Assembly: GCF_031583145.1 (NCBI RefSeq) | Contig: NZ_CP134050.1 | Span: 3,113,501-3,177,500, forward strand | Length of the DNA stretch: 64,000 nt | Direction of reading: 5' to 3' | From: Brevibacillus brevis | Lineage (GTDB): Bacteria; Bacillota; Bacilli; Brevibacillales; Brevibacillaceae | Shown: positions 10,753 through 41,566 of the stretch, piece after piece | Layout of the letters: each line of letters starts with the position of its first letter | How positions within the stretch are numbered: the stretch's first letter is position 1 | The notes under the pieces: model-generated | Database searches by the model: none | The model's input: only the letters and a program-made list of their open reading frames with translations | What the model was told of the DNA's origin: nothing | Made by a program: the position numbers and the translations under genes

Positions 10753-10786
10753 TAAATACATTCCGACAGGAGGTTTGCATGCCGTA

Positions 10787-11965
10787 GTGGATACGAAAAT
10801 ATACATCCTGGCCATCGCTGCGTTTGTCGTAGGCACCGTAGAGCTGATCATCGGCGGAATCCTGGATGTAGTGGCGCAAGACCTGAACATTTCCATCAGC
10901 ACAGCTGGCTGGCTGATTACCGCGTTTTCGATTGTCTTTGCGATTTCTGCACCGCTGCTTCTGACCGCAACGGCGAGAGTCGAAAGGAAAGCCCTGTACC
11001 TTTGGACGATGGCCGTATTCCTGATCGGGAGCGTCATTTCCACCTTCAGCCCGCATTACTCGATATTGATGCTGGGGCGGATCTTATCCGCGTCGAGCGG
11101 TTCGCTCATCATCGTGCTCTCCATCACGATCGCTTCTTCCATCGTGAAGCAAGAGTACCGCGCCAGAGCGATCGGCATCATTTTCATGGGCGTCAGCGGA
11201 TCATTGGTACTGGGCGTTCCGCTTGGACTTGTCATCGGCAATGCGTTCGGCTGGCGAGCTCCGTTTCTCCTGATCTCTGTCTTGACTCTCGCTTCCATGG
11301 TCGGCATTTACGCCTGGTTGCCGAACATACCGCCAAAGCCGATGATACCGCTCAGACAGCAGCTGCTCACTCTGAGGAAACCGAAGATTGTGAGCGCCCA
11401 ACTGACATCCGCCTTTATGCTGACCGGACACTTGACGCTTTACGCCTACTTCACGCCGTATGTCAAAAGCCAGTTGCACCTCTCGTCCGGCTGGGTCAGC
11501 ATCGTCTATTTCATCTTCGGGATCTCGGCTGTCATGGGAGGAGGTGTCGGGGGCTGGGCAGCAGACAAGTGGGGCTCCGCCAAGAGCATCTTAACGATTA
11601 TCGCTTCGTTTGCATTGGTGATGTTTCTCATTCCGGCGGTCTCTTTTTCGCTATCCCTGTTTCTCGTCGTCATGATTCTCTGGAGCATGCTGAGCTGGGC
11701 CATCACACCTGCCCAGCAAAATTACCTGATTGAAACCGCCCCTGAATCTTACGAGATCCAGCAAGGGTTGAACACAACTGCCCTGCATCTCGGGATTGCC
11801 CTCGGTTCGGGAGTCGGCGGTTTTGTCATCGAGCACCATTCCGTCGCAGACACCCCATGGGTTGGCGGATTGTTTGTCCTGATCTCGTTTATTTGCGCCG
11901 CTTTTTCCATCACCCGGCCTTCCACGGTCAAACTCGGTCAAACGATTTCCAAGATTTCCAACTAA
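10787..11965 (+). CDS. MFS efflux transporter, PbuE-like
   Basis: The product (392 aa from GTG 10787) has 12 predicted membrane segments. It closely follows my memory of B. subtilis PbuE, an exporter of hypoxanthine and other purine bases: AIGIIFMGVSGS..LGVPLG, LTLYAYFTPY, YFIFGISAVMGG, and AQQNYLIETAPES..IQQGLNT. The start is awkward: ACAGGAGG is followed by ATG-CCG-TAG, and the TAG overlaps the GTG used here. TTG 10775 is in frame but only one base from the ribosome site. In B. subtilis pbuE is controlled by an adenine riboswitch; I see no purine riboswitch here, but an operator overlaps the promoter. deoD follows, so the pump probably exports or exchanges purine bases made by phosphorolysis. 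Confidence 0.8.
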   Translation: MDTKIYILAIAAFVVGTVELIIGGILDVVAQDLNISISTAGWLITAFSIVFAISAPLLLTATARVERKALYLWTMAVFLIGSVISTFSPHYSILMLGRILSASSGSLIIVLSITIASSIVKQEYRARAIGIIFMGVSGSLVLGVPLGLVIGNAFGWRAPFLLISVLTLASMVGIYAWLPNIPPKPMIPLRQQLLTLRKPKIVSAQLTSAFMLTGHLTLYAYFTPYVKSQLHLSSGWVSIVYFIFGISAVMGGGVGGWAADKWGSAKSILTIIASFALVMFLIPAVSFSLSLFLVVMILWSMLSWAITPAQQNYLIETAPESYEIQQGLNTTALHLGIALGSGVGGFVIEHHSVADTPWVGGLFVLISFICAAFSITRPSTVKLGQTISKISN

Positions 11966-12016
11966 GGAGGTGAAAGCCGCCACGGGTGAGGCTCCCTCGT
12001 CCGTGACGGTTCATTC
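11964..12016 (+). promoter_or_regulatory. Split ribosome-binding site of deoD with an intervening hairpin
   Basis: AAGGAGGTGA (11964-11973) is a perfect Shine-Dalgarno but sits over 40 bases from the ATG at 12017. Between them CACGGGTGAGG (11981-11991) pairs with CCTCGTCCGTG (11995-12005) through 11 pairs including two G.U. The stem extends outward by five more pairs (11975-11979 with 12007-12011), with one C-A mismatch between the two parts. Folding it out leaves nine bases between SD and ATG, an optimal spacing. No good SD lies next to the ATG. Confidence 0.7.
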
Positions 12017-12727
12017 ATGAGTACGCATATCCAAGCCAAACCTGGCGAAATCGCCGAAGACATCCTTTTGCCAGGCGACCCTCTGCGCGCCAAATACGTC
12101 GCAGAGACGTTTCTCGAAGACGTGACTTGCTACAACCAGGTGAGAGGCATGCTGTGCTTCACGGGAACCTACCGGGGGAAACGAGTCTCTGTGCAAGGGA
12201 CAGGTATGGGCATCCCGTCCATTTCCATCTACGTGAACGAGCTGATTCGCGACTACGGCGTACGGAATCTGATTCGCGTCGGCACATGCGGAGGGATCCA
12301 GAAGGACGTAAAGGTGCGGGACGTCATCATCGCCATGACGGCCTGTACAGACTCGAACATGAACCGCCTGACCTTCCCGGGGTTTGAATTCGCCCCTTGC
12401 GCGAGCTTCGATTTGCTGAAAAAAGCCTATGATACGGGGATGGAAAAAGGTCTGCCGGTCCGGGTAGGCAACGTGCTGACAGCCGATGTGTTTTACCGTG
12501 ACAGTATGGAGCCCGTGCGAAAGCTGGGAGAGTACGGAGTCCTGGCCGTGGAGATGGAAACGACCGCCCTGTATACGCTCGCTGCAAAGTACGGCGTAAG
12601 CGGATTGTCGATCCTGACTGTCAGCGACCACATCTTCACCGGAGAGGAAACGACTGCGGAAGAACGCCAGACGACCTTCCAGGATATGATCGTCATGGCA
12701 TTGGAAGCGATCACTCGAAAATCGTGA
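12017..12727 (+). CDS. deoD: Purine-nucleoside phosphorylase, DeoD type
   Basis: At 236 residues this has the full length and motifs of the hexameric DeoD family: [15 protein letters not shown] near the N-terminus, [26 protein letters not shown], and [15 protein letters not shown]. The SDHIF segment carries the catalytic aspartate. The enzyme splits purine (deoxy)ribonucleosides with phosphate into base and (deoxy)ribose-1-phosphate in the cytoplasm. It follows the PbuE-like pump, and a nucleoside importer is encoded nearby, giving an import-phosphorolysis-base export scheme. An in-frame stop at 11987 rules out any earlier start. Confidence 0.96.
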
Positions 12728-12777: not shown

Positions 12778-13536
12778 TCAATAACGCAGCTGCATCAGGA
12801 TGTTTCTGATCTCGTCATCGCTCATCATGAGATCGTGGTGTTTGCGGCTGATTTTCGCGAGTGCAAGGTCGTGGTAGAAAAATTCGGTAAACACTTTTAC
12901 AAACGGCTTGGACATCGTTTTGATCGCTTGCCAGGATCGATTTTCTTCACAGGCGAAGATAATTTCCCGCTCGTCGACGATGATCAGGCGGAAGCGCTCC
13001 AGCGTGTGATGCTCCTCCGCAGGGATGAGGGTATGGACTTTCGCGATGTTCGGCTTCAACGATCCTACCACCAGCACCTCCACGTCCACGCCATTTGCCT
13101 CTTTCTGTTCCAGCAGCGGCAAGTATTCCACCAGGTCGTCCTTCCACGCGGAGATCCGAACCGAGCTCTTCGCGTCTTGAATGAGTTGTCTGCTTTGCAC
13201 CCGAATCGACGAGTCTACTTTCAGACTCCATACCAAATCCTCGGAAACGGATTTTTTGCTGGACTGGATTTTCAGCTGCTTGATATTGTCCTGGAATTCT
13301 GCTGTCAATTTCTCAATGGCGAGCGGCAAGGGCAGCGCGCTGTACAGTTTTTTCTTTTCCGACAAAGAGTCCAGGACCATGCCTTTCTCGATCATTCGCG
13401 AAAGCACTTCGTATATCTTGGCTTTCGGAACCCCGGAAAGCTTGACGATCTTCGTAGCGTCAAGCGGCTCCCCGCTCGTTACCAACGCTTCGAAAACCTT
13501 GCTCTCATACTGAGAAAAACCAAACTTTTGTAACAT
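12778..13536 (-). CDS. TrmB-family transcriptional regulator
   Basis: The ATG at 13536 has AGGAGG directly upstream, giving 252 residues. The N-terminus (FGFSQYESKVFEALVTSGEPLDATKIVKLSGVPKAKIYEVLSRMIEKGMV) is the TrmB winged-helix domain. A coiled-coil linker follows, then a PLD-like effector domain (SSVRISAWKDDL, HTLERFRLIIVDEREIIFA). TrmB proteins usually sense sugars or related metabolites. The gene lies between deoD and the NupC-type gene, and 22-bp palindromes precede both transporters. I infer it controls this purine-nucleoside module in response to a nucleoside or sugar phosphate. Direction of control (repression) is suggested by operator 1 covering a -10 box. Confidence 0.85.
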   Translation of the reverse strand: MLQKFGFSQYESKVFEALVTSGEPLDATKIVKLSGVPKAKIYEVLSRMIEKGMVLDSLSEKKKLYSALPLPLAIEKLTAEFQDNIKQLKIQSSKKSVSEDLVWSLKVDSSIRVQSRQLIQDAKSSVRISAWKDDLVEYLPLLEQKEANGVDVEVLVVGSLKPNIAKVHTLIPAEEHHTLERFRLIIVDEREIIFACEENRSWQAIKTMSKPFVKVFTEFFYHDLALAKISRKHHDLMMSDDEIRNILMQLRY

Positions 13537-13653
13537 GCTTCCTCCTGCCCGTATCAACTGGATATTTATTACCTATCATAAAACATGAGTGGCGGGAAAG
13601 CCAATGCCTCTCCCGAATTGACATGCGACAGCGTTCTAGGTAATCTGTTAAAT

Positions 13654-13675
13654 GGTTACTCTAAAGGTAGTAACT
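13654..13675 (+). promoter_or_regulatory. 22-bp operator 2, upstream of the NupC-type gene
   Basis: GGTTACT and AGTAACT flank an 8-bp centre. Positions 1-7 and 15-21 match operator 1 exactly. A TATAAT (13675-13680) overlaps its right edge, and a TTGACA stands at 13618-13623 upstream. Confidence 0.7.
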
Positions 13676-13761
13676 ATAATTCTAAATGGTTGCACTTCTC
13701 TCTCAACAGCAATGGAATGCGAAAGAGTCTTGCACATCACCGAAGGATGGGAGTTCGTGCC

Positions 13762-14946
13762 ATGAATATTGTCTTTTTGTTGACGGGATTCTTGCTCGTT
13801 TTTGGGATCGGCTACGCCGTCAGCCATCACCGGAGGGGAATCAGATACAAGCCGATTATCGCGATGCTTATCACCCAGCTCGTGCTGGCGTTTCTCCTGC
13901 TGAATACCGGGATCGGGATCGATCTGATCCTGTTTATTTCCAAAGCCTTCGACACGCTGATGAAGCTGGGAATCAGCGGGGTCGACTTTGTATTTGGCGG
14001 CCTGGAAAACGCGGGCAAGTCGACATTCTTCCTGGATGTCCTTCTTCCTATCATTTTCATCTCAGTCTTGATTGGCATTCTCAATTACTTCAAGATTTTG
14101 CCGTTCCTGATTCGATGGACAGGTCTCGTGCTCAGCAAACTGAACGGAATGGGCAAGCTGGAAAACTACATAGCCGTCTCCTCCGCTTTTCTCGGTCAAT
14201 CCGAAGTGTTCCTCACAGCGAAGAAGCAGCTGGGACTCGTCTCCGGCAGGCGTCTGTATACCCTGTGCACGTCTGCCATGAGTGCGGTCAGCATCGCAAT
14301 CGTCGGGGCCTACATGACGATGCTCGACCCGAGGTACGTCGTGGTAGCCATCGTGGTGAACATCTTGTCCGCCTTGATCGTGGCGAATATCATCAATCCG
14401 TACAAATTGACGGAGGAAGAGGATCTGATCGAACCGCAGGAGGAGGAAAAAAGGCCTGCCTTCTTCCAGATGATCAGTGAAAGCATCATGGATGGATTGA
14501 AAGTCGCGGTTATTGTCGCTGCGATGCTGATCGGCTTTATCGCCTTGATGAATCTGATCAATGAAATCTTCCTGTTGATTTTCCGCATCTCATTCCAAGA
14601 CGTGCTTGGGTATATCTTTGCACCGGTCGCCTTCCTGATGGGGGTTCCCCAGCCCGAGATCGTTTCAGCGGGAAGCGTCATGGCTACCAAAATCGTCACC
14701 AATGAGTTCGTCGCCATGCTGAATTTCAAAGATATGGCGAGCAGCCTATCCCCGAAAACAGTCGGGATCGTGTCCGTCTTCCTCGTCAGCTTCGCCAACT
14801 TTGGCTCGATCGGGATCATCACGGGCTCCGTCAAAGCGCTTCATGAACGGCAAGGGGATCTCGTAGCCAAATTCGGCCTGAAGCTGCTGCTCGGCTCGAC
14901 GCTCGCCTCTGTGCTGTCCGCGACTATTGTCGGCGTCTTTTTGTAA
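13762..14946 (+). CDS. nupC: Concentrative nucleoside transporter, NupC family
   Basis: I take ATG 13762 (394 aa), matching the usual family length near 390-400; upstream codons in frame overlap the operator region. Family blocks seen are GVDFVFGGLENAG, SAFLGQSEVFLTAKKQLG, MSAVSIAIVGAYM, GYIFAPVAFLMGVP, and FVAMLNF. The protein imports nucleosides with protons or sodium across the cytoplasmic membrane. It is monocistronic and preceded by operator 2, so it is probably co-regulated with the PbuE-like/deoD operon by the neighbouring TrmB regulator. Substrate range (pyrimidine versus purine) cannot be read from the sequence, but context favours purine nucleosides. Confidence 0.88.
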   Translation: MNIVFLLTGFLLVFGIGYAVSHHRRGIRYKPIIAMLITQLVLAFLLLNTGIGIDLILFISKAFDTLMKLGISGVDFVFGGLENAGKSTFFLDVLLPIIFISVLIGILNYFKILPFLIRWTGLVLSKLNGMGKLENYIAVSSAFLGQSEVFLTAKKQLGLVSGRRLYTLCTSAMSAVSIAIVGAYMTMLDPRYVVVAIVVNILSALIVANIINPYKLTEEEDLIEPQEEEKRPAFFQMISESIMDGLKVAVIVAAMLIGFIALMNLINEIFLLIFRISFQDVLGYIFAPVAFLMGVPQPEIVSAGSVMATKIVTNEFVAMLNFKDMASSLSPKTVGIVSVFLVSFANFGSIGIITGSVKALHERQGDLVAKFGLKLLLGSTLASVLSATIVGVFL

Positions 14947-40163: not shown

Positions 40164-40259
40164 CGGACTACCCCCCCTTTTCAATCAACATGACGATTAT
40201 ACTTCCCATTGGAAAAAAATCACAGAGTGGAAAGGTCTGCAAGGAACAGCGGGCAAATA

Positions 40260-40290
40260 AAAAAACTGCCCGCTATGCGGACAGTTTTTT
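40260..40290 (-). terminator. Terminator of the cold-shock gene
   Basis: AAAAAACTG.CCGC pairs with GCGG.CAGTTTTTT around a 3-base loop. Confidence 0.9.
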
Positions 40291-40301
40291 CTTCGGGAGA
40301 C

Positions 40302-40505
40302 TTACAGTTTTACTACGTTTTCAGCTTGTGGGCCACGGTTGCCTTGCACGATGTTGAATTGAACGCGTTGGCCTTCATCCAACGTTTTGAAACCATCGCC
40401 TTGAATTGCGCTGAAGTGTACGAATACATCGTCTCCGCCTTCTACTTGAATAAATCCGAAACCTTTTTCTGCGTTAAACCATTTTACCGTTCCGTTCGTT
40501 TGCAT
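40302..40505 (-). CDS. csp: CspA-family cold-shock protein
   Basis: The 67-residue OB-fold protein carries RNP1 GFGFIQ and RNP2 DVFVHFSAI, with [13 protein letters not shown] at the start. It binds single-stranded RNA and DNA and acts as an RNA chaperone in growth and cold adaptation. The ribosome site is TTGGAGG nine bases before the ATG. A promoter at 40871-40843 predicts a leader of about 330 nt, unusually long but in line with structured csp leaders. A large hairpin lies within it. Confidence 0.96.
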
Positions 40506-40570
40506 GAAAAAAAACCTCCAAGAAAGTCAATTTTGAATATGCTAGTCATATTTACCGAAGCAAATAAAGC

Positions 40571-40629
40571 TCACATATCATGAAGAGATACCAAGAGAAT
40601 CCTATGTGATATGTCTTCATGATATGTGA
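40571..40629 (-). promoter_or_regulatory. Large inverted repeat in the csp leader
   Basis: TCACATATCATGAAGA (40571-40586) and its exact complement TCTTCATGATATGTGA (40614-40629) are 27 bases apart. After one G-G mismatch three more pairs follow inside. In minus-strand RNA this makes an A/U-rich hairpin about 65-125 nt before the csp ATG. Confidence 0.7.
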
Positions 40630-40842
40630 ATACATACTTACTTCTTCTCATATGCGACAACCGTAATCTGGTACGAACTTTAACAAGGTACTTTTGAAAA
40701 CCTAAAACAACGAAAGCCCTTCCTCTCTTTCATCCTTGCGGCTCCGATGACCGCGCCAGTGTGAATCGGGCATTCAAAAAACGTAATCATCGCACGAGCA
40801 AATAGCGGGAATTACGTATCGGACTTTTCAAGTAGCAACATC

Positions 40843-41320: not shown

Positions 41321-41420
41321 ATTTTCGCTAGCAACCACAGTGCTTCCGGGCACTCTACCAAATATTACTCCTATCTTTTTCCGCTCGATCTCTGCTATTC
41401 TGGGTCATGCCAAAACAAAC

Positions 41421-41550
41421 AGCCGAAACTTCCTCTCGAATGGAAGTGCGGGGGATCTTTTTTGCAGATGGGAAATCTGCATGGGGTGAATCGCCACGTG
41501 GGCGTAGGGTTGTTTCCTCAATCCGAATCCGTCAACTAACCTCGTAGGCC
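41421..41550 (+). ncRNA. c-di-AMP riboswitch (ydaO/yuaA class)
   Basis: The interval contains the conserved parts of the ydaO motif in order: GCGGGGGATC, then ATGGGGTGAATCG, then GGCGTAGGG, then TCCGAATCCGTCAACTAACC and TCGTAGGC. The outer stem pairs GCC (41422-41424) with GGC near 41547. ydaO-type riboswitches bind c-di-AMP and usually switch off genes for cell-wall hydrolases and potassium or osmolyte uptake. Here the target is a secreted CAP-domain protein. The ribosome site AAAAGGAG starts within eight bases of the aptamer end, leaving no room for a separate terminator. Confidence 0.9.
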
Positions 41551-41566
41551 AAAAAAAGGAGACGAT

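What the first reader, a model, noticed from the sequence alone, without database searches (positions are those of the whole stretch)
11964..12019. Shine-Dalgarno and start codon of deoD separated by a stable hairpin
A perfect AAGGAGGTGA is more than 40 nt from the ATG. A hairpin of 11 pairs (including two G.U), extended by five more pairs past one mismatch, occupies 11975-12011. Looping it out leaves nine nt. Phage T4 genes 25 and 38 are known cases where a folded hairpin brings SD and AUG together; I know of no housekeeping metabolic gene described this way. Alternatively a 16-codon frame (GTG 11970) whose stop overlaps the deoD ATG (ATGA) may couple translation.
Basis: partly seen in the sequence, partly recalled or inferred. 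Interest (0 to 1): 0.6.

Follow-up and report, generated by a model that had tools for sequence, protein, structure and literature searches.

The report
Hairpin-bridged ribosome binding site of deoD
In a group of Bacillus-like bacteria the ribosome's landing signal for the nucleoside-recycling gene deoD sits far from the start codon, and a folded RNA hairpin of freely changing sequence but constant geometry closes the gap, an arrangement known from two phage T4 genes.

Summary
Between AAGGAGGTGA (11964-11973) and the deoD ATG (12017) lies a hairpin (11975-12011, 5+11 pairs around one C.A mismatch). All 10 aligned pairs show two-sided changes; 91% of cells pair (71% shuffled, 30% slid by one). 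The linear gap from GAGG to ATG varies from 35 to 71 nt, but the gap outside the stem is 10-13 nt (mean 11.0, sd 0.7). The Bacillota deoD leaders examined without the hairpin have a close SD; two of them nest inside the hairpin clade. Best reading: a split ribosome binding site like phage T4 genes 25 and 38. The same layout appears sporadically at other genes (ywhD, Coat_F, YheC/D, Asp23, PEP hydrolase-like, ribonucleotide reductase small chain). Initiation itself is inferred, not measured.

The parts
10775..11965 (+). upstream gene, MFS transporter; its TAA (11963-11965) overlaps the SD
   Evidence: ORF, PF07690 156.8 bits; an ORF of similar length and sequence start precedes deoD in 13 of the other 23 hairpin loci (likeness judged by eye)
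11964..11973 (+). extended Shine-Dalgarno AAGGAGGTGA
   Evidence: anti-SD duplex -15.2 kcal/mol; GAGGTG invariant in 24 of 24 aligned loci
11975..11991 (+). 5' arm of the hairpin
   Evidence: fold; covariation
11992..11994 (+). loop (not conserved in length or sequence)
11995..12011 (+). 3' arm of the hairpin
   Evidence: fold; covariation
12012..12016 (+). spacer from hairpin to ATG (6 nt in the aligned register; 5-7 nt in the 24 loci)
12017..12727 (+). deoD, DeoD-type purine-nucleoside phosphorylase, 236 aa
   Evidence: NF004489 387.6 bits, TIGR00107 342.2 bits

Best explanation
The deoD mRNA has a split ribosome binding site. A long, near-perfect SD (GGAGGTGA) pairs with the 16S 3' end; the hairpin that follows stays folded and is accommodated outside the mRNA path; the single strand left on either side (about 5 nt before and 6 nt after the stem) sets the AUG at a workable distance (about 11 nt from GAGG) for the P site. 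What is conserved is the geometry, not the hairpin's letters, so the hairpin acts as a spacer-shortening strut rather than as a binding site for a specific ligand or protein. Shown here: presence, conservation, covariation, constant looped-out spacing, linkage of distant SD with hairpin. Inferred: that the 30S subunit initiates on the folded form, and that the stem is not melted first.
For: (1) 10 of 10 stem pairs with changes on both sides, 91.3% of 240 cells paired versus 71.1% in shuffles (0 of 500 as high) and 27-56% when slid by 1-3 columns. (2) GAGG-to-ATG gap 35-71 nt (sd 8.7), looped-out 10-13 nt (mean 11.04, sd 0.68) in 24 of 24. (3) Distant SD -14.8 kcal/mol on average in 24 hairpin loci against -5.2 in 40 canonical loci; near SD -3.8 against -9.4. 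(4) Two canonical genes (L016, L036) fall inside the hairpin clade, and both have the SD next to the ATG; the tree needs 3 changes of the label, shuffled mean 16.5. (5) The intervening stretch folds more stably than nearly all shuffles: 0-1 of 300 as stable in 16 of 18 rows, 11-12 of 300 in L015 and its copy L067. (6) T4 genes 25 and 38 work this way by mutation, probing and reporter assays, with spacing reduced from 27 to 11 and from 22 to 5 nt (PMC3014915, a review, passages read).
Against: No expression, toeprint or probing data. Two hairpin loci hold a near-SD match of -7 kcal/mol or better (L010 -7.6, L007 -7.1). In L038 the upstream MFS frame reads through the SD and stops at -30, inside the hairpin, so passing ribosomes would open it there. 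In the window the SD also pairs with upstream bases (mean unpaired probability 0.20; 0.05 in L040; mean of 24 loci 0.50), and the AUG is on average 0.61 unpaired. L070 has only a 0.57 mean stem probability. 21 of 240 cells do not pair. Of the five shuffle measures, the number of pairs with two-sided change (20 of 500 shuffles as high) and of pair types (8 of 500) are weaker than the others.
Confidence: 0.85

Rival explanations
1. A short leader ORF in the hairpin region is translated from the SD, and its stop (ATGA) re-initiates deoD.
For: In the window the GTG frame at 11970 ends in TGA overlapping the ATG; the same holds in 5 of 24 loci, the window included. 13 of 24 loci have an ATG, GTG or TTG 3-15 nt past the SD core.
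Against: The frame is not conserved (14 of 24 end before the ATG, 3 inside deoD, 2 in frame); its GTG lies inside the SD. 11 of 24 loci have no start codon 3-15 nt past the SD core. It does not predict stem covariation or a constant looped-out distance.
Confidence: 0.04
2. The hairpin is a regulatory switch: translation is ON when folded and OFF when a protein, RNA, ligand or heat opens it (the reverse of an RNA thermometer).
For: Any agent that opens the stem would leave the SD 35-71 nt away; deoD and transporter expression could plausibly be regulated (inference).
Against: Loop and stem letters are not conserved, so no specific ligand or protein site is visible; the folds are stable (-13.6 to -32.8 kcal/mol in 18 rows); no Rfam family matches here.
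Confidence: 0.12
3. Translational coupling: ribosomes ending the MFS gene at the SD re-initiate at deoD, and the hairpin merely fills the gap.
For: The MFS stop overlaps or lies close to the SD in the window and other loci.
Against: L014, L018, L070, L071 and L075 (5 of 24) have no ORF of 100 or more codons ending within 200 nt upstream, nor has L072 if a start codon is required, yet they keep the architecture. In L074 the MFS-like frame is broken. Other loci have different genes upstream.
Confidence: 0.08
4. Intrinsic terminator, mRNA end or stability hairpin of the upstream gene that happens to lie before deoD.
For: It follows an upstream stop codon in many loci.
Against: No T run long enough for a terminator follows the stem (the longest is TTTT in L006); 5-7 nt and then ATG follow in 24 of 24. 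It would not fix the distance to SD and ATG.
Confidence: 0.03

Closest known systems
Split (accommodated) ribosome binding sites of phage T4 genes 25 and 38 (Nivinskas, Malys; via the review PMC3014915, passages read)
   Same: SD too far from AUG; a structure between them shortens the distance (27 to 11 nt, 22 to 5 nt there; 35-71 to 10-13 nt here); for gene 25, present in close relatives and lacking in more distant ones.
   Different: Here a cellular gene; longer and more variable hairpins; an extended SD; conservation across several genera with extensive replacement of the stem sequence; sporadic at unrelated genes. No mutational data here.
E. coli thrS split ribosome binding site (Sacerdot; via PMC3936740, passages read)
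   Same: The ribosome is said to accommodate a long hairpin without unfolding it.
   Different: In thrS the hairpin separates an upstream single-stranded region from the SD/AUG region (partly from memory); here it separates SD from AUG.
RBS-sequestering hairpins and RNA thermometers (general knowledge; one example in the passages of PMC8716806, gonococcal parA)
   Same: A hairpin at the translation start.
   Different: There the SD or AUG is in the stem and the fold represses; here both lie outside the conserved stem.

Membership tests
T4 gene 25/38-type split ribosome binding site | SD too distant from AUG for normal initiation, no competent SD nearby | tested here: met
   GAGG-ATG gap 35-71 nt in 24 of 24; near-SD mean -3.8 kcal/mol, 2 of 24 at -7 or below
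T4 gene 25/38-type split ribosome binding site | intervening RNA structure that reduces the distance to a functional one | tested here: met
   looped-out 10-13 nt, covariation; a prediction, not probing
T4 gene 25/38-type split ribosome binding site | destabilising the structure lowers translation, restoring it rescues | not testable with these tools
   needs reporters; natural losses (L016, L036) come with a near SD
T4 gene 25/38-type split ribosome binding site | structure seen by chemical probing | not testable with these tools
   no DMS or SHAPE data at hand
leader-peptide (uORF) control | conserved short frame with start and stop | tested here: not met
   5 of 24 overlap the ATG; 11 of 24 lack any start codon 3-15 nt past the SD core
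intrinsic terminator | U run directly after the stem | tested here: not met
   linkers of all 24 printed; longest T run is four (L006)
riboswitch or other curated RNA family | match to an Rfam covariance model | tested here: not met
   (gathering, whole window): none here; (E up to 5): one miRNA match on the other strand, 17.2 bits against a gathering score of 93
RBS-sequestering hairpin / thermometer | SD or AUG within the conserved stem | tested here: not met
   invariant GAGGTG and ATG lie outside the covarying stem in 24 of 24; partial pairing of SD or AUG with other bases does occur

The most novel reading that the evidence does not exclude
SD-hairpin-AUG is a general, reusable initiation architecture of Bacillota: one lineage of deoD has kept it across genera with only the geometry under selection, and single genomes use the same 9-13 nt looped-out geometry at unrelated genes (ywhD, Coat_F, YheC/D, Asp23, PEP hydrolase-like, RNR small chain). 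It would be a translation start that methods which read the spacer as linear sequence do not model.
Probability: 0.4. Interest if true: 0.8.

Novelty: new variant of a known kind. Interest (0 to 1): 0.7.

Why it matters
If right, it is a cellular, evolutionarily conserved case of a start site that needs a folded hairpin, with natural replicates (24 distinct leaders here, plus two natural losses). It gives a ready experiment on how the 30S subunit accommodates structured mRNA between SD and AUG, and a warning that start prediction, RBS design rules and 5'-UTR models that count linear spacing can miss real start sites.

Tried and rejected
Coupling by the 16-codon frame: rejected, not conserved. 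Coupling to the MFS gene: weakened, the architecture persists without it. Terminator: rejected. Rfam family: none here. Insertion of a repeated element: R1 finds no second strong copy in the window (next hit 10.5 bits) or in the own genome (next 22.0 bits, with 138 candidates scored; that hit, L161, shows no SD-hairpin-ATG fold).

ywhD: R1 hit L086 looked like a second conserved family, but of 26 ywhD loci folded (L109-L134, of 30 fetched) only that of the same genome (L109) shows the layout (judged by eye; some starts there may be misplaced). A near-identical ywhD copy with the hairpin turned up in a second genome (L166). L108 (29.4 bits) is a hairpin before a 17-codon frame, L087 and L090 are hairpins before frames of 1 and 6 codons, L169 is weak; none is counted. 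Of the R1 hits below 27 bits that were looked at, most are canonical SDs or chance, but L089 (24.1 bits) and L167 (22.8 bits) carry the layout. L089 was first misread because its match does not start at base 1500 of the locus; the strict scan then found the site.

A loose scan for SD-hairpin-ATG over 1.256 Mb was not informative (341 hits, 299 in a mirror control; 169 and 159 without a competing start, of which deoD of the window was the best with 16 pairs; in 0.4 Mb of G403 48 and 36; the printout was cut). The strict scan (8 or more unbroken pairs) gave 0 hits against 1 mirror control in the 1.256 Mb (the window's own stem is excluded by its mismatch), 1 against 0 in 0.4 Mb of G403, and 17 against 0 in 669,859 bases of other loci, of which 12 are deoD; these loci were fetched because they matched deoD, R1 or ywhD and so give no base rate. 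One of the 17, L004 (near SD -8.1), was not judged. With 7 or more pairs: 2 against 0 in 667,192 bases of G336 (one is the PEP hydrolase-like case), 1 against 1 in G403, 2 against 2 in 1.192 Mb of the own genome.

Family searches on shortened L165 and L167 proteins gave nothing; on whole ones NCBIfam gave nothing and Pfam named them. Literature searches for an earlier cellular case; none seen in the listings, or in the passages read of PMC3014915, PMC11109978, PMC3936740, PMC8716806 and PMC4611024. Most listed papers were not opened (for example PMC9409239 and PMC6316719). The library is open-access only. A search aimed at deoD with Brevibacillus failed on its terms and was not repeated, which included deoD, found nothing.

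Rows left out of counts: L039, L041, L069, L067 (same leaders as L005, L006, L007, L015). Not in the tree: L033-L035 (Bacteroidota, no SD), L037, L023-L025 and part of the Brevibacillus paralogues. Not in the SD table: L016 (only 95 bases upstream held), L025, L033-L035, L037.

Full report
What is in the sequence. The window's deoD (12017-12727, NF004489 387.6 bits) starts 46 nt after the GAGG of a ten-base SD, AAGGAGGTGA, which overlaps the stop codon of an MFS transporter gene. The stretch between folds into one hairpin, 11975-12011, 5+11 pairs around a C.A mismatch, -22.5 kcal/mol, more stable than 300 of 300 shuffles (a 121-nt fold gives z -3.3, 0 of 200 shuffles as stable). The ATG is the first start codon of its frame, and near it there is no useful SD (-3.8 against -15.2 kcal/mol).

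Conservation. A scan of named genomes with the protein gave 34 loci. By reading their leaders, 14 of 34 have SD-hairpin-ATG, 17 have a canonical SD, and 3 Bacteroidota have none. Of the 16 loci at 78% identity or more, 14 have the hairpin. In the genus search 26 of 26 genomes hold a deoD. Five of them, the own genome included, hold this deoD (89-100% identity), and all five leaders carry the hairpin. The genus also holds a second deoD at 67-71% identity: its leaders from the own genome (L002) and from 24 other genomes (L043-L066) have a canonical SD and no hairpin between SD and ATG; that of the remaining genome was not fetched. A sixth Brevibacillaceae genome, of another genus in this grouping, has the L015-type leader (L067). 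In 398 genomes of the class, 14 have a match at E 1e-115 or better; 13 carry the hairpin and 1 (L076) is canonical.

Covariation. 24 distinct leaders were aligned from SD to ATG (A2). GAGGTG and ATG are invariant. In the 10-pair stem register every pair has changes on both sides; 219 of 240 cells pair (91.3%), against 71.1% in shuffles of the 3' letters (0 of 500 as high) and 27-56% when the partner is slid by 1-3 columns (17 rows; 24 rows). The shuffle keeps composition but not relatedness, the slide keeps relatedness; both point the same way. The alignment register was chosen by hand from the folds, which favours the stem on cells paired. Among close Brevibacillus relatives the window's stem differs from L005 by four two-sided changes that keep pairing; from L042 it differs by three, of which two do not pair.

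Geometry. The linear GAGG-ATG gap runs from 35 to 71 nt (mean 46.1, sd 8.7); the part outside the stem is 4-6 nt before and 5-7 nt after it, 10-13 nt in all (mean 11.04, sd 0.68), in 24 of 24. Loops differ in length and sequence. This is what a spacer-shortening strut predicts, and what a ligand or protein site does not.

Linkage of SD and hairpin. In 24 hairpin loci the distant SD averages -14.8 kcal/mol and the near one -3.8; in 40 canonical loci the near SD averages -9.4 and the distant one -5.2. 40 of 40 canonical loci and 2 of 24 hairpin loci (L007, L010) have a near match of -7 or better. In a protein tree of 49 DeoD rows the 24 hairpin rows share a clade (91/89) with two canonical rows, L016 (well placed, beside L017) and L036 (in an open fork); the label needs 3 changes, shuffled mean 16.5. 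One gain and two losses is a simple history; in both losses the SD is at normal distance.

Context. An MFS gene like the window's precedes deoD in 14 of 24 hairpin loci, the window included (likeness by eye), and a broken MFS-like frame in L074. L014, L018, L070, L071 and L075 have no ORF of 100 or more codons ending within 200 nt upstream, nor has L072 if a start codon is required. L073 follows an ORF whose end looks DeoC-like by eye (from memory, no search). So upstream translation of one partner is not a fixed part of the system. L038 is an awkward case: the MFS frame runs through the SD and ends inside the hairpin.

Other genes. A covariance model (R1) finds only deoD strongly in the window (50.7 bits, next 10.5). 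Over 299 class genomes it gave nine hits above 40 bits: eight before deoD and one, L085, before a 56-codon frame without a Pfam match. That large search scored only 18 candidates a genome, so it can miss cases. This search, a finer one of 23 genomes of one family, and scans of held DNA showed the same layout before ywhD (L086, L166), a Coat_F protein (L165), a YheC/D ATP-grasp (L167), a PEP hydrolase-like gene (L168, minus strand), an Asp23 gene (L243) and a ribonucleotide reductase small chain (L089) (families). The gap outside the stem is 9-12 nt in the six that measured (L085, L089, L165, L167, L168, L243); for the ywhD sites my own count gives 11 or 13, depending on whether the outermost A-U pair is counted. 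For ywhD the layout is absent from the 25 other-genome orthologues folded, and other orders of genes were not compared, so these cases look sporadic. In 1.256 Mb of the window's own genome the strict scan found none (mirror control 1), so the layout is rare there.

Mechanism. The T4 genes 25 and 38 are the precedent: the distance falls from 27 to 11 and from 22 to 5 nt by a structure, and mutations that destabilise it lower initiation (PMC3014915, passages only). The gene 25 value of 11 nt equals the mean here, though the counting rule of that paper was not checked. PMC3936740 (passages) reports that in thrS the ribosome accommodates a long hairpin without unfolding it. I infer that the 30S binds the strong SD, leaves the hairpin folded and places the AUG across the 10-13 nt left. 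Why the arrangement persists is open. A neutral history is enough: a hairpin arose or grew between SD and AUG, was tolerated because it folds, and is now kept since opening it would cost deoD expression. A regulatory use is not excluded.

Novelty. Eight completed literature searches that bear on this in an open-access library listed no cellular gene described this way as far as titles, abstracts and the passages opened show; this does not cover subscription journals. I rate it a new variant of a known kind.

Noticed in passing
window 40259-40641 (-): Rfam cspA thermoregulator model (RF01766) matches above its gathering score (82 against 78 bits) in this window; from memory this family is enterobacterial, so either the range is wider or the match is to the coding part.
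   Followed up: no
window 40697-40784 (+) and 41411-41565 (+): BsrC small RNA and a c-di-AMP riboswitch lie within a kilobase of each other.
   Followed up: no
window 12778-13557 (-) and 13585-14946 (+): A protein with weak similarity to TrmB-type sugar-sensing regulators and a NupC-type nucleoside transporter lie beside deoD; an ORF resembling the regulator's start also lies upstream of deoD in L008.
   Followed up: partly
G000:C1:3108454-3109152 (L002), about 4.3 kb left of the window: A second deoD (70% identity) with a canonical SD in the same genome.
   Followed up: partly
L168 (G336), both strands: Two SD-hairpin-ATG-like sites in one 3-kb locus: a PEP hydrolase-like gene on the minus strand, and a 9-10-pair hairpin before an ATG on the plus strand with no frame over 35 codons.
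   Followed up: partly
L074 (G390), upstream of deoD: The MFS-like reading frame before deoD is broken (ends at -332), while the deoD hairpin is intact; a real pseudogene or an assembly error.
   Followed up: no
L085, L086, L165, L167, L168, L243: Stems at unrelated genes often begin with similar letters (CCGTTAC, CGTTAC, CTGTTGC, CCTGTTA, CCTGTTGC, CCTGCTAC), close to the commonest deoD stem CCGTTAC; chance, shared origin or a sequence preference was not tested.
   Followed up: no
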